DNA from: Citrobacter sp. On2M
GTDB taxonomy: Bacteria; Pseudomonadota; Gammaproteobacteria; Enterobacterales; Enterobacteriaceae
NCBI RefSeq assembly: GCF_018035235.1
Contig: NZ_WPCV01000002.1
Location: forward strand, 186,001 to 250,000
Length of the DNA: 64,000 bases
Direction: 5' to 3'
Shown: in pieces, positions 35,901-43,475 of the stretch
Position numbering within the stretch: position 1 is the stretch's first letter
Layout of the letters: every line of letters begins with the position of its first letter
The notes under the pieces: generated by a model
Seen by the model: the letters and a program-made list of their open reading frames with translations, nothing else
Told to the model about the DNA's origin: nothing
Database searches by the model: none
Translations under genes and position numbers: made by a program

Positions 35901-35964
35901 TTCTTCCAGTGATAAATCGTGAACCCGACCCATTTTGCGGCGCAGATCACTAACGCTGACCCCC

Positions 35965-35984
35965 TTTCCACTTCGAAGTGGAAA
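35965..35984. promoter_or_regulatory. Perfect 20-bp palindrome, candidate operator of the unknown operon
   Basis: TTTCCACTTC followed by its exact reverse complement, with no spacer, lies about 87 bases before the first gene. This is the best candidate binding site for the PRD/EIIA regulator encoded at the end of the cluster. It could also form an RNA hairpin, but no T-tract follows. Confidence 0.6.
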
Positions 35985-36070: not shown

Positions 36071-36379
36071 ATGAATGACATGGGGGAATCGGTGGAACTG
36101 GCCGACCGCATGCTGGCACAGGTGTATGCCTTGCTGCGTGAACGCCACATTATTCCCAACGCTGTACAGGAACAGATGCTGACGTCGCATGTTCGCGCCA
36201 TGGCGCACCGCTCGGTAACGGGTGAACCCTTACCTGAAGTCGATGCCAGCTTGTTTGATGAAATTTCTGCCGAATCAATGGCGCTTGCCCGCGACGTGGT
36301 TGCCGAGTTTGGCAACCTTCCTGAGGAAGAGGCCTGGCTGCTGTCGGTGCACTTCGAAGTCGCAAAAGACAACCTTTAA
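36071..36379 (+). CDS. Stand-alone PRD-domain protein, first gene of the unknown operon
   Basis: 102 residues from the ATG at 36071 (CGGAG upstream); a GTG at 36053 would add six residues. The whole protein is one PTS-regulation domain, with both typical histidine contexts: MLTSHVRAMAHR and EEAWLLSVHFEVAKDN. PRDs are phosphorylated by PTS proteins to report sugar flux. With no DNA-binding part it probably works by protein contact with the operon's transporter proteins or regulator. This is inference; the domain call is firm. Confidence 0.82.
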   Translation: MNDMGESVELADRMLAQVYALLRERHIIPNAVQEQMLTSHVRAMAHRSVTGEPLPEVDASLFDEISAESMALARDVVAEFGNLPEEEAWLLSVHFEVAKDNL

Positions 36380-36389
36380 GGAGCAAAAG

Positions 36390-36752
36390 ATGGAACAGAT
36401 TACCGTAGTGATTGGCGATCGTCTGGGTAAAGGCCAGAAAGTGGCGGCAGGCGTTGAGAAAGCGGGTGGCCGTGCGGTTGTGGTACCAGGCGTTGCGGCT
36501 GACATGAAGCTGGGTGACGTAATGAAAGCGGAAAACGCCACCTTTGGTATCTCGTTTTGCGGCAGCGGTGGGGCGGGGGCAATTACCGCGCAGAACAAAT
36601 ACGGCTACAAGGCGAAATACGGCATGCGCTCGGTTGATGAAGGCGTCACCGCCATCAACGAAGGTTGCAACGTGCTGGGGTTCGGTTTTATGGACAAAGA
36701 AGAGCTCGGTGAACGCCTGGTTCAGGCGTGGCAAAAGAAACACGGCGCTTAA
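36390..36752 (+). CDS. Small glycine-rich 'SFCGS' family protein of unknown function
   Basis: 120 residues starting MEQITVVIGDRLGKGQKVAAG behind AAGGAGCAAAAG. The hallmark is FGISFCGSGGAGAIT with Cys57, followed by a KYGYKAKYGMRSVDEGV block. I recognise it as the family found next to DUF4310-4312 genes (Enterococcus EF_0830 type). The beta-strand, CGSG loop, helix layout recalls the phosphocysteine loop of PTS EIIB proteins, but this similarity is only by eye. Function unknown. Confidence 0.8.
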   Translation: MEQITVVIGDRLGKGQKVAAGVEKAGGRAVVVPGVAADMKLGDVMKAENATFGISFCGSGGAGAITAQNKYGYKAKYGMRSVDEGVTAINEGCNVLGFGFMDKEELGERLVQAWQKKHGA

Positions 36753-36754
36753 GC

Positions 36755-37054
36755 ATGAAAGAGCAATTCACCACCACGGTGAGAGTCACTGGCAAGGGCG
36801 AGGCAAAAGCGCGCGCCTTTGCCGACGCCCTGAACCACGTTCAGGCTGCGGTGATGAAAGCGTCGCCGCATATCTTACTGCGTATTGAGCCACAGGATGT
36901 GCAGGTTGTTCAAGCGCGTGAAACGGTGCGCAAAGAGGCGTTTTTATTTCTCTTTCTGCGCCGGGAAAGACGCACCTTCAGCGTGGAGCTGGATGTGACC
37001 GTCAACGTGACTGCCATCAATCTCGACAAGGTGGATTTCGTTACGCAACGCTGA
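36755..37054 (+). CDS. DUF4312-type small cytoplasmic protein
   Basis: 99 residues from the ATG at 36755, two bases after the previous stop. It has a ferredoxin-like alternation (TTTVRVTGKGEAKARAFADALNHVQAAVM) and a basic centre (FLFLRRERRTFSVELDVTVNV). It belongs to the conserved gene set of EF_0831 type; no function is known. Tight spacing argues for a complex with the SFCGS protein and the membrane subunits. Confidence 0.78.
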   Translation: MKEQFTTTVRVTGKGEAKARAFADALNHVQAAVMKASPHILLRIEPQDVQVVQARETVRKEAFLFLFLRRERRTFSVELDVTVNVTAINLDKVDFVTQR

Positions 37055-37076
37055 TTCTTTATTAAAAGGCATAAAT

Positions 37077-37853
37077 ATGTTCCTGATAATATTAATAAAA
37101 TCGCTCATCATTGGTGGCCTGGTTGGCGTCGGTGTCGGCGCTGGGGCTGCACGCATGTTTCATGCGCCTACCACTCAAGGGATGGGCGCGTTTCGTACTC
37201 TGGGAGAACTGAATTCCTGTGAAGGGGATCCGGCTTCTCACTTCTCGTTCGGCCTGGGCTTCTTCTTTAACGCCTGGGCTTCTTCCGTTGCGGCGGGAGC
37301 GTTCACGCAGGACGTTGACCATCGCATCATCCCCAACTGGGGCGCCGCCGCGCTGATGGTTAAAAACCGCAACGTCGGCGAAACGCTGCACGATCCCAAA
37401 CGCATGGCGATTGCCTGTGGCGTTATCGGGATGATTGTCGTGACCTTCCTGAACCTCACCGCGTCATCCGTACCGGAAGCGCTGCAAGTTACTGCCGTCA
37501 AGGTACTGGTGCCTGCGGCTAACCTGCTGGTTAACACCGTGATGCCAGTGATTTTCTGGCTGGCGGCGATCGATGCCGGTAAGAAATCAGGTTTCTGGGC
37601 CACCGTTTTTGGCGGCGCGGCGCAACTGATTATGGGCAACGCCGTCCCGGGTCTGGTCCTTGGTATTTTGATCGGTAAAGGCGTGGAAGAAAGCGGCTGG
37701 AACCACGTTACCAAAGTCATGATGGTGGCTATTGTTGCACTGTTTGTCCTGAGCGGCTTCTTCCGCGGCTTCGATATGAAGATGATCGAATCCTTCCATC
37801 TGACTGTGCCTGGCTGGTTGGAACTTATCCATAACTCACTCAGCGGCAAATAA
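37077..37853 (+). CDS. DUF4311-type polytopic membrane protein
   Basis: 258 residues with about six to seven hydrophobic helices. The start MFLIILIKSLIIGGLVGVGVGAGAARMFHAP is followed by the loop HFSFGLGFFFNAWASSVAAGAFTQDVDHRIIPNWGAAALM. It is the EF_0832-type protein of the conserved cluster. I find no resemblance to classical PTS EIIC/EIID, ABC permeases or MFS proteins. It is a likely channel or transporter subunit of an uncharacterised system. Confidence 0.8.
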   Translation: MFLIILIKSLIIGGLVGVGVGAGAARMFHAPTTQGMGAFRTLGELNSCEGDPASHFSFGLGFFFNAWASSVAAGAFTQDVDHRIIPNWGAAALMVKNRNVGETLHDPKRMAIACGVIGMIVVTFLNLTASSVPEALQVTAVKVLVPAANLLVNTVMPVIFWLAAIDAGKKSGFWATVFGGAAQLIMGNAVPGLVLGILIGKGVEESGWNHVTKVMMVAIVALFVLSGFFRGFDMKMIESFHLTVPGWLELIHNSLSGK

Positions 37854-37864
37854 CGGAGGCCATC

Positions 37865-38509
37865 ATGGAACAGAATAAAGGTTTTTGGTTCGCTGACTGG
37901 TCGTTCCCGATCTTCGTTGGCCTGCTCTCCTCTGGCGTATTTGCCGGAACGCACATGTACTACCTGTACGGTATCGGCGCATTTAACGAAGTCGCTTTTG
38001 TGGCGATGCTAAAGGCGGGAATGGACACCGGCTCTTACGGAGCGGTGGCGGCATTTGGCGCAAGCTTCCTGTTTGCCCGCATCATTGAAGGTTCGCTGGT
38101 GGGGATTCTGGATATCGGCGGCGCGATTCAGACCGGAGTCGGGTTAGGTGTTCCGGCGCTGTTGCTGGGCGCGGGCATTATCTTCCCGGTCGCCAACTTC
38201 GCCGCCTCTCTGGTCACCGGCCTGGTGATTGGCCTGGCGATTGGCTACATCATCATCCTGGCGCGTAAGTTCACCATCAATCAGAGCGATTCAACCTACG
38301 GGGCGGACGTCATGATGGGGGCCGGTAACGCCTCTGGCCGCTTCCTCGGGCCATTGATTATCCTCAGCGCGATGACCGCTTCTATCCCTATCGGCATCGG
38401 TTCGCTGGCAGGTGCGCTGCTGTTTTACCTGTGGCAAAAACCGATCACCGGCGGGGCGATCCTTGGGGCAATGATCCTCGGTTCAATCTTCCCGATTGCC
38501 ATTAGCTAA
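37865..38509 (+). CDS. DUF4310-type polytopic membrane protein
   Basis: 214 residues with about six helices, starting MEQNKGFWFADWSFPIFVGLLSSGVFAGTHMYYLYGIGAFNEVAF and ending in hydrophobic ILGAMILGSIFPIAIS. It follows the DUF4311 gene by 11 bases behind ACGGAGG. Glycine-rich helices such as GASFLFARIIEGSLVGILDIGGAIQTGVG suggest close helix packing. It is the likely second membrane subunit of the same complex (EF_0833 type). Confidence 0.8.
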   Translation: MEQNKGFWFADWSFPIFVGLLSSGVFAGTHMYYLYGIGAFNEVAFVAMLKAGMDTGSYGAVAAFGASFLFARIIEGSLVGILDIGGAIQTGVGLGVPALLLGAGIIFPVANFAASLVTGLVIGLAIGYIIILARKFTINQSDSTYGADVMMGAGNASGRFLGPLIILSAMTASIPIGIGSLAGALLFYLWQKPITGGAILGAMILGSIFPIAIS

Positions 38510-38519
38510 CTGTTGATTT

Positions 38520-38555
38520 GTAGGCCGGATAAGGCGGTTACGCCGCCATCCGGCA
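38520..38555. repeat. REP element inside the unknown operon
   Basis: GTAGGCCGGATAAGGCGG...CCGCCATCCGGC lies between the DUF4310 gene and the amidohydrolase gene. It divides the transport half of the operon from the enzyme half and may set their relative expression. Confidence 0.8.
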
Positions 38556-38567
38556 AAGGAGAGAGCG

Positions 38568-39701
38568 ATGTTTGATTTACTCCTGCGCCGTGCGCGCCTC
38601 GTTGACGATACGGTGAGCGATATTGCGCTGAAAGACGGCAAAATTGCGGCGTTGGGCAACGTTGATGGCCCAGCGCTGAAAACCATTGAGCTCGGCGGCG
38701 AGTGCTACGTCAGCGCAGGCTGGATTGATTCCCACGTTCACTGTTACCCGAAATCCCCGATTTATCACGACCAGCCGGACAGCGTCGGTATTGCGACTGG
38801 CGTCACCACGGTCGTGGATGCGGGCAGTACCGGGGCGGATGATATCGACGATTTTTACACCTTGACCCGGGAAGCGACGACTGAAGTGTATGCGCTGCTG
38901 AACATCTCCCGTGTTGGGCTTATTGCCCAGAATGAGCTGGCTAACATGGCCAATATTGACGCCGATGCGGTGCGGCAGGCAGTGAAACGCTATCCTGATT
39001 TTATCGTCGGCCTGAAGGCACGCATGAGCAGCAGCGTGGTCGGTGAAAACGGCATCACCCCGCTGGATCGTGCCAAAGAGATGCAAAAAGAGAATGGCGA
39101 CCTGCCGCTGATGGTGCACATCGGCAACAACCCGCCGAATCTCGATGAGATCGCCGAACGCCTGAGTGCGGGCGACATTATTACCCACTGCTACAACGGT
39201 AAGCCGAACCGCATTCTGACGCCGCAAGGCGAGCTGCGCGCATCTGTCACGCGGGCGCTGCAACGTGGAGTCCGTCTGGACGTTGGCCACGGCACCGCCA
39301 GCCTGAGCTTTGCGGTGGCAAAACGCGCTATCGGTCTTGGCATTTTGCCGCACACCATCAGCTCCGATATTTATTGCCGCAACCGTATCAGCGGTCCTGT
39401 GTATTCCCTGGCGAATGTGATGTCGAAATTTCTCGCCATTGGGATGTCGCTCCCGCAGGTCATCGAGTGCGTGACCGCCAATGCCGCTGACGGCCTGCGT
39501 CTGAAACAGAAAGGGCGACTGCAGGTTGGTCTGGATGCTGATTTGACCCTCTTTACGCTTAAGCGCCAGCCAACCGTGCTGGTAGATGCAGAAAACGACA
39601 GCCTGCAGGCTGAACAACTGCTGGTGCCGCTTGCCGCAATACGTGCGGGCAAGGGCTATATGACCGAACAAGGGAGCGCGGAACATGCCTTCGATTTTTG
39701 A
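38568..39701 (+). CDS. Metal-dependent amidohydrolase/deacetylase of the unknown operon
   Basis: 377 residues of the dihydroorotase-like amidohydrolase superfamily. The visible metal ligands are H56 and H58 (WIDSHVHCY), K150 (FIVGLKAR, position of the carbamylated lysine), H184 (LMVHIGNNPP), H207 (DIITHCYNG) and D267 (ISSDIY). It should hydrolyse an amide, acetamide or cyclic imide/lactam of the imported compound before the PLP enzyme acts. Related proteins are annotated as the EF_0837 family with no proven substrate. The start at 38568 follows GGAGAGCG. Confidence 0.85.
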   Translation: MFDLLLRRARLVDDTVSDIALKDGKIAALGNVDGPALKTIELGGECYVSAGWIDSHVHCYPKSPIYHDQPDSVGIATGVTTVVDAGSTGADDIDDFYTLTREATTEVYALLNISRVGLIAQNELANMANIDADAVRQAVKRYPDFIVGLKARMSSSVVGENGITPLDRAKEMQKENGDLPLMVHIGNNPPNLDEIAERLSAGDIITHCYNGKPNRILTPQGELRASVTRALQRGVRLDVGHGTASLSFAVAKRAIGLGILPHTISSDIYCRNRISGPVYSLANVMSKFLAIGMSLPQVIECVTANAADGLRLKQKGRLQVGLDADLTLFTLKRQPTVLVDAENDSLQAEQLLVPLAAIRAGKGYMTEQGSAEHAFDF

Positions 39702-40803
39702 GAAATACGATTTAAAACAGGTAATTAACACATCAGGCCGTATGACGGCACTTGGCGTCTCCACGCCGCGACCAGAAGTGGTTCAGGTCGCGATGGCGGG
39801 AATGAATCAGTACTTCGAAATGAAAGATCTGGTCAATAAAACCGGCGACTACATCGCGAAATTACTGGAAGTGGAAGGGGCGACAGTCGTTTCCTGCGCG
39901 TCGGCGGGAATCGCCCAGTCGGTGGCTGCGGTGCTGGTTAAAGATAGCGACTGGCTGCTGGAAAATCTGCACGTTACGCCCATCGAGAACAACGAAATCG
40001 TGCTGCCCAGAGGCCACAACGTCAACTTTGGCGCACCGGTAGGCACTATGGTGGCGCTCGGCGGCGGTAAGCTGGTGGAAGCGGGCTATGCCAATGAATG
40101 TTCCGCGGCACAGCTGGCGGCGGCCATTACGCCGCGCACGGCGGCGATTCTTTATATCAAATCTCACCACTGTGTACAGAAAAGTATGCTCAGCGTGGAG
40201 CAGGCCGCGGTGGTGGCGCGCACGCATAATCTGCCGCTGATTGTGGACGCAGCGGCGGAAGAAGATTTGCAGTGCTACTACCGCCTTGGTGCGGACCTGG
40301 TGATTTACAGCGGCGCAAAGGCGATTGAAGGGCCAACCAGCGGTCTGGTGATCGGCAAAACCCAGTACGTTGAGTGGGTGAAGCGCCAGACGGCGGGGAT
40401 TGGCCGGGCGATGAAGGTGGGCAAAGAGGGTATTCTTGGCCTGACCTGCGCTATCGAACTGTATCTGAACGCGCAAAAAGAGAGTGGCGCGGAGATGGTC
40501 GAGAAAATGACGCCGTTCATTAATGCGCTGAATACCTTTAATGGCGTCAGTGCCCGCGTGGTGTGGGATGGCGCTGGGCGCGACATCGCCCGTACGGAAA
40601 TTAAGTTTGACGAAGCGGTAACCGGTATCGCCACGGGCGAACTGGTTGAAGCCCTGAAACAAGGCGAGTACGCGATTTACTTCCGTGGTTACAAAGCCAA
40701 CGAAGGCATTATCGAGGCCGATGTGCGCAGCGTCGATCGCGCGCAACTGGAAATTGTGGCCCGTCGAATTGGTGAAGTGATTTCACAGGAGAAAAACGCA
40801 TGA
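39685..40803 (+). CDS. SelA-like PLP enzyme related to D-glucosaminate-6-phosphate ammonia-lyase (DgaE)
   Basis: 372 residues, overlapping the amidohydrolase gene by 17 bases. Fold-type I PLP pattern: CASAGIAQSVAAV loop, Asp in PLIVDAAAEEDL, and the Schiff-base lysine K212 in DLVIYSGAKAIEGPTSG. It belongs to the family containing Salmonella DgaE, which removes ammonia from D-glucosaminate-6-phosphate to give 2-keto-3-deoxygluconate-6-phosphate. An equivalent elimination on a related amino-sugar acid is the best guess. Confidence 0.8.
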   Translation: MPSIFEKYDLKQVINTSGRMTALGVSTPRPEVVQVAMAGMNQYFEMKDLVNKTGDYIAKLLEVEGATVVSCASAGIAQSVAAVLVKDSDWLLENLHVTPIENNEIVLPRGHNVNFGAPVGTMVALGGGKLVEAGYANECSAAQLAAAITPRTAAILYIKSHHCVQKSMLSVEQAAVVARTHNLPLIVDAAAEEDLQCYYRLGADLVIYSGAKAIEGPTSGLVIGKTQYVEWVKRQTAGIGRAMKVGKEGILGLTCAIELYLNAQKESGAEMVEKMTPFINALNTFNGVSARVVWDGAGRDIARTEIKFDEAVTGIATGELVEALKQGEYAIYFRGYKANEGIIEADVRSVDRAQLEIVARRIGEVISQEKNA

Positions 40804-41540
40804 AACTGACCCCTAACTTTTATCGCGACCGCGTCTGCCTGAACGTGCTGGCGGGCTCCAAAGAAAATGCGCGGGAGATTTACGCGGCAGCGGAAGGACA
40901 CGTGCTGGTCGGCGTGTTGTCAAAAAATTATCCGGATGTCGCAAGCGCGGTCGCGGATATGCGTGAATACGCAGCGCTTATCGACAATGCGCTCTCCGTG
41001 GGATTGGGGGCAGGCGACCCAAACCAGTCGGCGATGGTCAGTGAGATCTCTCGTCAGGTACAGCCGCAGCATGTTAATCAAGTCTTTACCGGTGTGGCAA
41101 CCAGTCGTGCGCTGTTGGGCCAGCAGGAGACGGTAGTCAACGGTCTGGTCTCGCCAACGGGTACGCCGGGGATGGTGAAAATCTCCACCGGTCCGCTGAG
41201 CAGCCAGACATCGGACGGTATTGTACCGGTAGAAACCGCGATTGCGTTGCTCAAAGATATGGGTGGTAGCTCGATTAAATACTTCCCGATGGGCGGCCTG
41301 AAATGCCGTGATGAGTACATTGCCGTAGCGCAGGCCTGTGCCCGGCATGACTTCTGGCTGGAGCCTACCGGGGGTATCGATCTGGATAATTTCACTGAAA
41401 TCCTGCAGATCGCTCTGGATGCCGGAGTGAGCAAAATCATTCCTCACATCTATAGTTCGATTATTGATAAGGTGAGTGGTAACACCCGCCCGGATGACGT
41501 GCGCCAGTTGATGGCGATGACCCGGGCTTGCGTAGGCTAA
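40800..41540 (+). CDS. KDPG-aldolase-like enzyme related to DgaF
   Basis: 246 residues; the ATG overlaps the previous stop by ATGA. It is a TIM-barrel class I aldolase-like protein of the DgaF/EF_0839 type, with GGSSIKYFPMGGLKCRDEYIAV carrying the probable Schiff-base lysine and FWLEPTGGIDLDNFTEIL the phosphate-binding region. The DgaF relative cleaves 2-keto-3-deoxygluconate-6-phosphate to pyruvate and glyceraldehyde-3-phosphate, so the operon probably feeds lower glycolysis. Confidence 0.82.
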   Translation: MKLTPNFYRDRVCLNVLAGSKENAREIYAAAEGHVLVGVLSKNYPDVASAVADMREYAALIDNALSVGLGAGDPNQSAMVSEISRQVQPQHVNQVFTGVATSRALLGQQETVVNGLVSPTGTPGMVKISTGPLSSQTSDGIVPVETAIALLKDMGGSSIKYFPMGGLKCRDEYIAVAQACARHDFWLEPTGGIDLDNFTEILQIALDAGVSKIIPHIYSSIIDKVSGNTRPDDVRQLMAMTRACVG

Positions 41541-41561
41541 CTGACAGATGAGGAGACTGAC

Positions 41562-43475
41562 GTGCGATTCCCCAACCAACGTTTAGCGCAGCTGTTTGGC
41601 ATGCTGCAAAACGAAGCGCTTCCACAGGACGAGCTGGCGCAGCGGTTGTCGGTTTCCACACGCACCGTACGAGCTGACATCACTGCGCTAAACGCGCTGC
41701 TCACCCAGTACGGCGCGCAGTTTGTCCTCAGCCGGGGCAACGGTTATCAGCTCAAAATTGACGATCCGGCAAGTTATCATACCCTGCAAACGCAGCAGCC
41801 TGATGGGTTGCTGCGCATCCCGCGAACCAGCCAGGAACGGATACACTGGCTGGTGGTTCGTTTTCTGACGTCGGCCTTCTCGCTAAAGCTTGAAGATTTG
41901 GCTGATGAATGGTTTATCAGCCGTGCGACGCTGCAAAACGATATGGCTGAGGTACGTGAACATTTGCAACGTTATCATCTCACGCTGGAAACGCGCCCCC
42001 GTCACGGCATGAAGCTGTTTGGCAGCGAGATGGCGATCCGCGCCTGTCTGACCGATCTGCTGTGGACGCTGGCGCAGCAGGATCCGCAGCACCCATTAGT
42101 GATGCAAGAGGCGCTGAATGCCGGGATCCCTGAGCAGCTACAGCCCGTTTTACAGGATATTTTTGCTCGTTTTCATATTCGCCTGACCGATGAGGGCGAG
42201 CTATTTTTGCGGTTGTACAGCGCAGTAGCGGTACGGCGGATTAGCGAAGGGTATCCATTGCCGGAGTTTGCCGCAGAAGAAACGGATCAATCGGTATGCC
42301 TTGCCGCGCGTGAGATTGCGGCGGTCCTGCACCGACTGGCAGACAAACCGCTTTCTGTTTTCGAAGAGAACTGGCTACAGGTGCACATCGCCGCCCGTCA
42401 GGTACAAGAGATCGCCCCCAGCGCCATCAATGCGGATGATGACGAAGCGCTGGTTAATTACATCCTGCGTTTTATCAACACGCAGTACAACTACAACCTG
42501 TTGAATGACAAACAGTTACATGCCGATCTGCTGACGCATATTAAGACGATGATCACCCGCGTACGTTACCAGATAATGATCCCCAATCCGCTGCTGGAAA
42601 ATATTAAACAGCACTATCCTATGGCGTGGGATATGACGCTGGCCGCCGTCTCGGGATGGGGGAAATATACGCCATATGCCATCAGTGAAAATGAGATTGG
42701 CTTTCTGGTCCTGCATATTGGCGTTGGATTGGAACGTAGTTACAACATCGGTTACCAGAGACAGCCGAAAGTTCTGCTGGTATGCGATGCCGGAAACGCG
42801 ATGGCGCGGATGATTGAAGCGGTGCTGGCGCGTAAGTATCCGCAGATAGAAATTGTCGATACCGTCACGCTGCGTGACTACGAACAGCGGGAAAGCATTA
42901 GCGAGGATTTTGTTATCTCTACCGCGCGGATCGGGGAAAAAGATAAGCCTGTAGCGATGATTGCGCCGTTCCCGACCGATTATCAACTGGAGCAAATTGG
43001 CAAACTGGTGCTGGTGGACAGAACTCGTCCGTGGATGCTGAATAAATTTTTCGATGCCGCCCATTTTCGTGTGATCGACGGTCCTATGGATCAACAAACG
43101 CTGTTCACCACGCTATGTCGGCAGTTGCAGAATGAAGGCTTTGTCGATGTAGAGTTTCTTGATTCGGTGGTTGAACGTGAGGCCATCGTCAGCACGATGC
43201 TGGGCGACGGCATCGCGTTGCCGCACGCCCTCGGTCTGCTGGCAAAGAAAACGGTGGTCTACACTATCCTCGCTCCGCAGGGTATTGCCTGGGGCGATGA
43301 AACGGCGCACGTGATCTTTCTCCTCGCCATCAGTAAAAGCGAGTACGAAGAAGCGATGGCGATCTACGATATTTTCGTCACCTTCCTGCGCGAGCGCGCC
43401 ATGACGCGGCTCTGCGCATGTCAGAATTTCAGCGAGTTCAAAACCGTCGCCATGGAGTGCGTGAGCCGTTTTTGA
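41562..43475 (+). CDS. BglG/MtlR-type regulator with HTH, two PRDs, EIIB-like and EIIA domains
   Basis: 637 residues from a GTG at 41562 behind GAGGAGACTGAC. Domains in order: an N-terminal winged HTH (DELAQRLSVSTRTVRADITAL), a second HTH-like segment, two PRDs (about 170-390), an EIIB-galactitol-like domain (KVLLVCDAGNAMARMIEAVL) and a C-terminal fructose-type EIIA domain (GDGIALPHALGLLAKK, with the phosphorylatable His). This is the layout of DNA-binding PTS-controlled activators such as MtlR. Last in the cluster, it likely regulates the operon in response to PTS phosphorylation. Confidence 0.88.
   Translation: MRFPNQRLAQLFGMLQNEALPQDELAQRLSVSTRTVRADITALNALLTQYGAQFVLSRGNGYQLKIDDPASYHTLQTQQPDGLLRIPRTSQERIHWLVVRFLTSAFSLKLEDLADEWFISRATLQNDMAEVREHLQRYHLTLETRPRHGMKLFGSEMAIRACLTDLLWTLAQQDPQHPLVMQEALNAGIPEQLQPVLQDIFARFHIRLTDEGELFLRLYSAVAVRRISEGYPLPEFAAEETDQSVCLAAREIAAVLHRLADKPLSVFEENWLQVHIAARQVQEIAPSAINADDDEALVNYILRFINTQYNYNLLNDKQLHADLLTHIKTMITRVRYQIMIPNPLLENIKQHYPMAWDMTLAAVSGWGKYTPYAISENEIGFLVLHIGVGLERSYNIGYQRQPKVLLVCDAGNAMARMIEAVLARKYPQIEIVDTVTLRDYEQRESISEDFVISTARIGEKDKPVAMIAPFPTDYQLEQIGKLVLVDRTRPWMLNKFFDAAHFRVIDGPMDQQTLFTTLCRQLQNEGFVDVEFLDSVVEREAIVSTMLGDGIALPHALGLLAKKTVVYTILAPQGIAWGDETAHVIFLLAISKSEYEEAMAIYDIFVTFLRERAMTRLCACQNFSEFKTVAMECVSRF

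What the first reader, a model, noticed from the sequence alone, without database searches (positions are those of the whole stretch)
36071..43475. Complete uncharacterised uptake-and-breakdown operon (PRD, SFCGS, DUF4312, DUF4311, DUF4310, amidohydrolase, SelA-like, aldolase, PRD regulator)
Nine plus-strand genes in tight order include four proteins of unknown function, two of them polytopic membrane proteins that look like no classical permease. They are fixed to three sugar-acid-type enzymes and two PTS-controlled PRD proteins. I recognise the set as the Enterococcus EF_0830-EF_0839-like conserved cluster, whose function is not known to me. Tight co-occurrence across distant phyla would mean one functional machine, probably a new transporter class with its catabolic route.
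Basis: partly seen in the sequence, partly recalled or inferred. Interest (0 to 1): 0.88.

Follow-up and report, generated by a model that had tools for sequence, protein, structure and literature searches.

The report
Amino-sugar-acid uptake and breakdown operon
A nine-gene bacterial operon most likely imports an acylated amino-sugar acid (best guess N-acetylglucosaminic acid) and breaks it down to pyruvate, using a membrane importer that matched no permease family tested but appears related to an equally mysterious E. coli gene set.

Summary
In detail: nine plus-strand genes at 36071-43475 match the NCBIfam EF_0829-EF_0839/AHA_391x cluster. The same nine stand in the same order in 80 of 80 Enterobacterales loci found through DUF4310. 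The five-gene transport set also occurs in Enterococcus and two Bartonella plasmids, and with a truncated DUF4310 in Aeromonas.

New here: (1) The enzymes are a deacetylase-type amidohydrolase, a DgaE-type ammonia lyase and a KDPG aldolase, so the substrate is probably an N-acyl-2-amino-2-deoxy-aldonate. (2) In three Bacillota loci the same enzymes stand with ordinary transporters (PTS EIIC plus MupG twice, GntP once) and a kinase; no such kinase was found beside operons that have only the DUF431x set. (3) PRD, SFCGS and joined DUF4311-DUF4310 look like distant relatives of E. coli YhfY, YhfU and YhfT. (4) Both Bartonella copies carry an HPr-EI gene, which suggests dependence on the PTS. (5) A conserved 20-bp palindrome and a CRP-like site precede the operon.

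The membrane proteins gave no convincing match to the EIIC/EIID families tested. Whether import is coupled to phosphorylation is unresolved; the substrate is inferred, not shown.

The parts
35936..35951 (.). CRP-like site (TGnG..TCAC type; weak in the window)
   Evidence: TGnG-N6-8-TCAC lies within 60 bases upstream of the palindrome in 75 of 78 Enterobacterales loci that have the palindrome; GATCAC at one fixed distance in 71 of 78, 0 in control windows 2 kb downstream. Window coordinates read by eye. CRP consensus recalled.
35965..35984 (.). 20-bp perfect palindrome, predicted operator of the PRD regulator
   Evidence: Only match in the window even at 3 mismatches, 0 expected; exact (centre Y/R) in 78 of the 80 Enterobacterales loci L011-L090, missing from L067 and L085; a 2-mismatch copy upstream of the Aeromonas PRD gene; none in Bartonella L009.
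36071..36379 (+). small PRD protein (EF_0829 family), YhfY relative; His40 and His94 invariant
   Evidence: TIGR03582 4e-41; H40 and H94 in 78 of 78 distinct sequences; hhalign to YhfY E 3.3e-6
36390..36752 (+). glycine-rich SFCGS protein (EF_0830), YhfU/DUF2620 relative with invariant Cys57
   Evidence: PF14272 5e-60, TIGR03577; Cys57 in 61 of 61 distinct sequences; hhalign to YhfU E 6e-4, nearly full length, Cys on Cys
36755..37054 (+). DUF4312 (EF_0831), small soluble-looking protein, role unknown
   Evidence: PF14189 8e-33; TIGR03578
37077..37853 (+). DUF4311 (EF_0832) membrane protein; proposed N-terminal half of a split YhfT-type protein
   Evidence: PF14188 7e-122; 5 hydrophobic segments by a crude hydropathy count; aligns with YhfT when joined to DUF4310, not alone
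37865..38509 (+). DUF4310 (EF_0833) membrane protein; proposed C-terminal half of a split YhfT-type protein
   Evidence: PF14187 7e-107; 4 hydrophobic segments; hhalign to YhfT E 0.0035, 0 of 150 block shuffles as high
38568..39701 (+). amidohydrolase/deacetylase (EF_0837 family), predicted N-deacylase
   Evidence: TIGR03583 8e-177; PDB 8wzy, 2ics, 2ogj; HxH, Lys, His, His, Asp set in 88 of 88 distinct sequences
39685..40803 (+). DgaE-type PLP ammonia lyase
   Evidence: TIGR01437 4e-181; PDB 7lc0/7lce E 3.6e-85; equivalents of His163, Arg301, Arg332 in 88 of 88, His162 and Arg346 in 87 of 88 distinct sequences
40800..41540 (+). KDGP (2-keto-3-deoxy-6-phosphogluconate) aldolase, DgaF-like
   Evidence: PF07071 4e-111; TIGR03581 and NF047796 both over cut-off; PDB 3m0z 3e-142
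41562..43475 (+). PRD transcription regulator (HTH, Mga HTH, two PRD stretches, EIIA-2 domain), GTG start
   Evidence: PF08279, PF05043, PF00874, PF00359 over cut-off; last gene of the nine in 80 of 80 loci

Best explanation
The operon takes up and breaks down an N-acylated 2-amino-2-deoxy-aldonic acid, most likely N-acetyl-D-glucosaminate (oxidised N-acetylglucosamine). The PRD protein, SFCGS, DUF4312, DUF4311 and DUF4310 form the importer: DUF4311+DUF4310 are the two halves of a YhfT-type membrane protein, SFCGS is a soluble protein with an invariant cysteine, and the PRD protein links the set to the PTS. Inside the cell the amidohydrolase removes the acyl group, the DgaE-type enzyme eliminates ammonia to give 2-keto-3-deoxygluconate or its 6-phosphate, and the aldolase cleaves the 6-phosphate to pyruvate and glyceraldehyde-3-phosphate. 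The PRD regulator, reading PTS phosphorylation, probably binds the palindrome at 35965-35984; a CRP-like site adds catabolite control. Shown by sequence: gene set, order, family membership, active-site residues, conserved upstream sites. Statistically supported: YhfTUY kinship. Inferred: substrate, transport, coupling, operator function. I lean slightly (about 45%) to import being coupled to phosphorylation.
For: DgaE-family residues for catalysis and 6-phosphate binding kept; KDGP aldolase over cut-off; intact amidohydrolase centre. In 3 Bacillota loci without the DUF431x set the same three enzymes stand with a PTS EIIC and MupG (L091, L093) or a GntP symporter (L092), each with a PfkB kinase whose best models are KDPG-aldolase/kinase fusions and KDG kinases, all below cut-off: the triad follows sugar and sugar-acid transporters, and the DUF431x set stands in the transporter's place. 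A lactonase-family gene lies between aldolase and regulator in 45 of 80 Enterobacterales loci (family from the Klebsiella copy), as expected for an aldonic acid that arises as a lactone. A published pathway for N-acetylglucosaminate runs through the same intermediates with other enzyme families (PMC9537276, passages). HPr-EI gene in 2 of 2 Bartonella copies. Module similarity to YhfTUY. The own genome also has a dga-like cluster with mannose-type EIIC/EIID, so this operon's extra deacetylase points to an acylated substrate.
Against: No substrate, transport or enzyme activity was measured. The phosphate-site arginines are also kept in the 4 kinase-linked DgaE proteins checked, so they do not tell 6-phosphate from free substrate; Bartonella has Ala in place of His162, which PMC9529869 calls conserved in all DGL. 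Kinase presence is confounded with phylum: the kinase-bearing loci are all Bacillota and the kinase-free ones all Pseudomonadota, and E. faecalis has both the module and a kinase, plus an EIIC. Enterobacteria can supply KDG kinase from elsewhere (recalled). HPr-EI in Bartonella could serve only the regulator. An Aeromonas proteomics paper could not confirm the N-acetylglucosaminate route in its strains (PMC11653859, passages). AlphaFold models of DUF4310/DUF4311 were too poor to use. A crude hydropathy count gives 5+4 segments for DUF4311+DUF4310 but 12 for YhfT, which does not favour the split-YhfT claim.
Confidence: 0.5

Rival explanations
1. Same pathway, but the importer is a plain secondary (ion-coupled) transporter. 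The substrate enters unphosphorylated, 2-keto-3-deoxygluconate is phosphorylated by a kinase encoded elsewhere, and the PRD proteins and the Bartonella HPr-EI serve regulation only.
For: A GntP symporter plus kinase stand beside the same triad in Priestia (L092); the published N-acetylglucosaminate pathway phosphorylates only at the KDG stage and uses an SSS symporter (PMC9537276, passages); no convincing match of the membrane proteins to the PTS permeases tested. In E. coli K-12 the small PRD gene yhfY lies beside the regulator gene yhfZ, away from yhfTU.
Against: Does not explain the invariant cysteine of SFCGS and YhfU, nor why the PRD gene directly precedes SFCGS in 80 of 80 loci and DUF2620 in Cetobacterium.
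Confidence: 0.35
2. The importer and triad act on a different acylated compound: another N-acyl amino-aldonate (galactosaminate or mannosaminate type), a muramic-acid-derived or disaccharide acid, or an O-acyl (ester) acid.
For: A MupG (6-phospho-N-acetylmuramidase family) gene beside the triad in 3 loci (L008, L091, L093; family named for the E. faecalis copy) points to a disaccharide with a wall-sugar part in Bacillota; relatives of the amidohydrolase were reported to hydrolyse an alpha-acetoxy acid (recalled, not seen in a call).
Against: The characterised DgaE and DgaF act on the D-gluco series (PMC9529869); the DgaE residues named there are nearly all kept.
Confidence: 0.3
3. The PRD-SFCGS-DUF431x set is not a transporter but a membrane-bound sensor or enzyme complex (SFCGS being an isomerase of the RpiB/LacAB fold).
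For: SFCGS and YhfU give weak hits to the RpiB/LacAB isomerase family over the cysteine motif (PF02502 E 0.006 to 0.23; two of the six weak PDB hits of the YhfU profile are named ribose/galactose isomerases; SFCGS to E. coli RpiB E 0.33).
Against: The RpiB likeness is weak in the shuffle control (10 of 150 shuffles as high); no other transporter gene is annotated inside the Klebsiella and Bartonella operons or listed among the nine in the window.
Confidence: 0.1

Closest known systems
NCBIfam cluster EF_0829-EF_0839 / AHA_3910-3917 (TIGR03577-03583)
   Same: Eight of nine window proteins score over the cut-offs of these models or of TIGR01437; same gene order as in E. faecalis for the transport set.
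   Different: E. faecalis has the regulator first, inserts EIIC, a 99-aa ORF and MupG before the enzymes and has a kinase after them; the models assign no function.
D-glucosaminate (dga) operon of Salmonella (DgaABCDEF)
   Same: Ammonia lyase and aldolase of the same families; the own genome has a 43% identical DgaE relative next to mannose-type EIIC/EIID.
   Different: The window operon has the DUF431x set in place of a mannose-family PTS and adds a deacetylase; its lyase is below the cut-off of the specific DgaE model NF047797 (367 against 600 bits).
E. coli yhf operon (yhfSTUVWXYZ), uncharacterised
   Same: Small PRD protein, DUF2620 protein with invariant Cys (10 of 10) and membrane YhfT; in Cetobacterium they stand as PRD-DUF2620-YhfT in a row.
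   Different: YhfT is one protein, not two; no DUF4312; other enzymes (aminotransferase YhfS, hydrolase Php, mutase YhfW, YhfX); in K-12 yhfY is not next to yhfU.
Oxidative chitin (ong) pathway of Pseudoalteromonas
   Same: Deacetylation, deamination to KDG, KDG kinase, KDPG (PMC9537276, passages).
   Different: [quoted passage not shown] the importer is an SSS symporter.

Membership tests
EF_0829-EF_0839 conserved cluster | Members score over the curated cut-offs | tested here: met
   Eight of nine proteins over NCBIfam cut-offs; the regulator has no such model
[quoted passage not shown]
   367.2 bits against 600; over the broader DgaE subfamily TIGR01437
[quoted passage not shown]
   All five kept in the window protein; over 88 distinct sequences 87, 88, 88, 88, 87 (residues from PMC9529869). 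Exceptions: Ala for His162 in Bartonella L009, Cys for Arg346 in the distant L094.
KDPG aldolase of the DgaF type | Over cut-off of NF047796 and PF07071 | tested here: met
   393.9 against 300 bits; 370.7 against 26.7
Known PTS permease (Man, Gat/Ula, glucose superfamilies) | EIIC/EIID homology of the membrane proteins | tested here: not met
   hhalign E 0.02 to 0.7; best DUF4311 to EIIC-Gat E 0.022 over only 15 columns, though above its reversed controls (0.25, 0.36); DUF4311 to EIIC-Man is below a reversed control; no PTS family among Pfam hits. Glucitol and Dha types not tested.
PTS (works like) | Phosphoryl transfer from HPr to the transport proteins | not testable with these tools
   Only indirect: HPr-EI beside the operon in 2 of 2 Bartonella plasmids, invariant PRD histidines and SFCGS cysteine
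YhfTUY-type module | PRD, Cys protein and membrane protein homologous to YhfY, YhfU, YhfT | tested here: met
   hhalign E 3.3e-6, 6e-4, 1.7e-4 (joined DUF4311-DUF4310); shuffles as high 3/150, 1/150, 0/150; swapped order drops the score from 40.5 to 30.5. Distant; DUF4311 alone gives nothing (E 0.11), hydropathy counts differ, no structure.
N-acetylglucosaminate deacetylase | Activity on N-acetylglucosaminate | not testable with these tools
   Family name and intact metal centre only

The most novel reading that the evidence does not exclude
The PRD-SFCGS-DUF4311/DUF4310 set, together with YhfY-YhfU-YhfT of E. coli, is a previously unrecognised class of PTS permease built from parts outside the known classes: a PRD histidine takes the place of EIIA, an RpiB-like cysteine protein that of EIIB, and a YhfT-type membrane protein that of EIIC, phosphorylating amino-sugar acids as they enter.
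Probability: 0.25. Interest if true: 0.88.

Novelty: new variant of a known kind. Interest (0 to 1): 0.62.

Why it matters
Four families of unknown function and E. coli K-12's own uncharacterised yhfTUY genes would be explained by one transport module, which can then be tested in a laboratory strain. If import is coupled to phosphorylation it would be a new class of PTS permease. The pathway would give gut and soil bacteria a second, separately evolved route for oxidised amino sugars such as those that lytic polysaccharide monooxygenases release from chitin.

Tried and rejected
Structure prediction of DUF4310 and DUF4311: mean pLDDT 38 and 48, alignments too uniform (47 and 46 rows: the window plus Enterobacterales); no fold search was run on them. 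Mannose-type EIIC/EIID, galactitol-type EIIC, glucose-type EIIC (3 sequences) and GntP (1 sequence) as relatives of the membrane proteins: no convincing signal (the one hint, DUF4311 to EIIC-Gat, covers 15 columns). DUF4311 alone against YhfT: no signal (E 0.11, equal to reversed controls); the kinship rests on DUF4310 and on the joined order. SFCGS as an RpiB/LacAB isomerase: recurrent weak hits, but 10 of 150 shuffles score as high, kept only as a fold hint. DUF4312: no relative found outside its family. No relatives in viral contigs (279, 32 and 32 pattern matches, none confirmed). No match in 'near' DNA mode in the E. coli collection of 5,426 genomes. DUF4310 in 7 of 299 sampled Pseudomonadota genomes, all in the window's own family; 0 of 394 in a family taken as that of Rhizobium (nothing rang in the controls either, so it does not prove absence); SFCGS in 1 of 369 sampled Gammaproteobacteria, the window's own. 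Rows dropped: proteins under 80% coverage, on the minus strand of a locus or with a stop were left out (83 to 88 kept per family, from 100 loci then held, of which some never held the operon). Searches counted some rows twice; one search recounts over distinct sequences and its numbers are used here.
Full report
What is there. The window lies in a 5.04-Mb genome that is Citrobacter-like: the closest named loci, nine Citrobacter species, have an identical DUF4310. Nine intact plus-strand genes fill 36071-43475 between cybC upstream and nrdG/nrdD downstream (neighbours named from the Klebsiella annotation). Pfam and NCBIfam give: a small PRD protein (TIGR03582), glycine-rich SFCGS protein (PF14272, TIGR03577), DUF4312 (TIGR03578), DUF4311 (TIGR03580 = EF_0832), DUF4310 (TIGR03579 = EF_0833), an amidohydrolase/deacetylase (TIGR03583), a DgaE-family ammonia lyase (TIGR01437), a KDGP aldolase (PF07071, TIGR03581, NF047796) and a regulator with HTH, PRD and EIIA-2 domains.

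Conservation. A search of contigs from 84,980 species with a four-sequence DUF4310 alignment found 468 relatives and kept the best 80, all Enterobacterales. All nine genes stand in the same order on one strand in 80 of 80. Between the window and Klebsiella the membrane proteins (96% and 94%) and SFCGS (93%) are as conserved as pmbA (92%) and far more than cybC (67%). In an even sample DUF4310 occurs in 7 of 299 Pseudomonadota genomes, all in the window's own family. Outside the order the transport set was found in Enterococcus faecalis, two Bartonella plasmids and, with a truncated DUF4310, Aeromonas caviae, so it does cross phyla, patchily.

The enzymes. [quoted passage not shown] His162 and His163, and Arg301, 332 and 346, near which the FEBS Letters 2022 paper (PMC9529869; part 1 of 3 and passages) docks the 6-phosphate by hand, are all kept in the window protein, and in 87, 88, 88, 88 and 87 of 88 distinct sequences. 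The exceptions are Ala for His162 in Bartonella L009 and Cys for Arg346 in the distant L094. The aldolase matches PDB 3m0z at 3e-142. The amidohydrolase is closest to PDB 8wzy (called dihydroorotase) and 2ics (called adenine deaminase; the E. faecalis protein of L008 by its sequence); its HxH, Lys, His, His, Asp set is invariant in 88 of 88. The chain deacylation, deamination, aldol cleavage therefore points to an N-acyl-2-amino-2-deoxy-aldonate. A published route for N-acetylglucosaminate uses the same intermediates with other enzyme families (PMC9537276 and PMC12017989, passages). The window's genome also holds a dga-like cluster with mannose-type EIIC/EIID beside a 43% identical DgaE relative.

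Swapped transporters. The same three enzymes stand with a Lac-type PTS, MupG and a PfkB kinase on a Clostridioides difficile plasmid, with a PTS EIIC, MupG and kinase in Niallia, and with GntP and kinase in Priestia. E. faecalis has the DUF431x set plus EIIC, MupG and kinase. The four kinases score best against a KDPG-aldolase/kinase fusion model and KDG kinases, all below cut-off. By tblastn no such kinase lies in 80 of 80 Enterobacterales loci, nor in the Klebsiella, Bartonella (L009) and Aeromonas stretches (flanks up to 10 kb); none is annotated in the second Bartonella stretch. So the DUF431x set stands where a transporter is expected, and a kinase is present where import is, or may be, non-phosphorylating for the acid. 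This second point is confounded with phylum and weak by itself. A lactonase-family gene lies between aldolase and regulator in 45 of 80 loci (Klebsiella copy PF10282).

PTS link. Both Bartonella plasmids carry, directly after the regulator, a gene for an HPr-EI fusion (HPr, PEP-utiliser N, mobile and C domains in both), and no other PTS gene is annotated on plasmid HY406, apart from the PRD proteins. This suggests that the system is phosphorylated by the PTS at some point, in the regulator, the PRD protein or the transport proteins; it does not say which.

Kinship with yhf. E. faecalis SFCGS hits DUF2620 weakly (E 0.034) and Cetobacterium DUF2620 hits SFCGS weakly (E 0.09). DUF2620 is YhfU of E. 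coli K-12, whose operon also holds a small PRD protein (YhfY) and a membrane protein (YhfT); in Cetobacterium they stand as PRD-DUF2620-YhfT in a row, as PRD-SFCGS-(DUF4312)-DUF4311-DUF4310 does here, while in K-12 yhfY lies apart from yhfU. Profile comparison (single-comparison E-values): PRD-YhfY 3.3e-6; SFCGS-YhfU 6e-4 over nearly the full length with the invariant cysteines aligned; joined DUF4311-DUF4310 against YhfT 1.7e-4, collinear. Reversed controls gave 0.08 to 0.78. Block shuffles reached the score in 3, 1 and 0 of 150; with the halves swapped the score fell from 40.5 to 30.5. Against it: plain BLASTP of window SFCGS and YhfU gives nothing (E 0.10 on another stretch), hhalign on the first small alignments gave only PRD-YhfY, DUF4311 alone gives nothing, and a crude hydropathy count finds 5+4 segments against 12 in YhfT. 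I take the module kinship as likely (about 0.75). A Lactobacillus rhamnosus paper lists PRD, DUF2620, membrane and phosphotriesterase-related proteins, the first three with neighbouring accession numbers (PMC7513527, passages), which fits the same module.

Control region. A 20-bp perfect palindrome at 35965-35984 is present in 78 of 80 Enterobacterales loci and, with 2 mismatches, in Aeromonas, not in Bartonella L009; it is unexpected by chance. GATCAC of a CRP-like site sits at one fixed distance before it in 71 of 78.

Against my reading. Nothing was measured. The phosphate-site arginines do not separate the kinase-linked DgaE proteins from the others. The structure models failed. Shuffle frequencies of 1 and 3 in 150 for the two small proteins are modest; the case rests on three pairs plus gene order. 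Searches for a published function: (DUF and SFCGS names; 7 of 7 listed titles off topic; 40 of 2,481 listed, mostly unrelated 'dgae' matches; listings) and passages of PMC9007349 (nothing on it). [quoted passage not shown] Most subscription journals are not held, so an unseen report is possible.

Noticed in passing
L172 (E. coli K-12 3498000-3514000, yhfS-yhfZ); own genome G000:C1:377097-378374: The uncharacterised yhf operon carries the same kind of PRD/Cys-protein/membrane module; the window's genome has a YhfT copy too.
   Followed up: partly
L096:10425-11036: In Aeromonas caviae KAM479 a deletion joins the start of DUF4310 in frame to the end of the aldolase; amidohydrolase and DgaE genes are missing from the locus.
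   Followed up: no
L008:17717-18471: In the E. faecalis IDRL-9065 record the aldolase reading frame is interrupted and no gene is annotated there: damaged gene or sequencing error.
   Followed up: no
window 38515-38562: REP-like palindromic repeat between DUF4310 and the amidohydrolase, i.e. between transport and enzyme genes; could set different expression levels (by eye).
   Followed up: no
L091, L093, L008: MupG-family gene beside the deacetylase-DgaE-aldolase triad in three Bacillota loci suggests a phosphorylated disaccharide whose second half is the acid.
   Followed up: partly
L096:13060-14706: The Aeromonas operon lies next to genes that read like npr, rapZ and ptsN of the nitrogen PTS (by eye from ORF translations).
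   Followed up: no
L010:16954-17470: Klebsiella has a RelB/RelE-type toxin-antitoxin pair between the regulator and nrdG.
   Followed up: no
control: The SFCGS profile rings below cut-off in Lactococcus lactis, possibly the LacA/LacB isomerases; not resolved.
   Followed up: no
L009:4081-5193: The Bartonella DgaE-type protein has Ala where His162 of the characterised enzyme stands, while His163 is kept.
   Followed up: no
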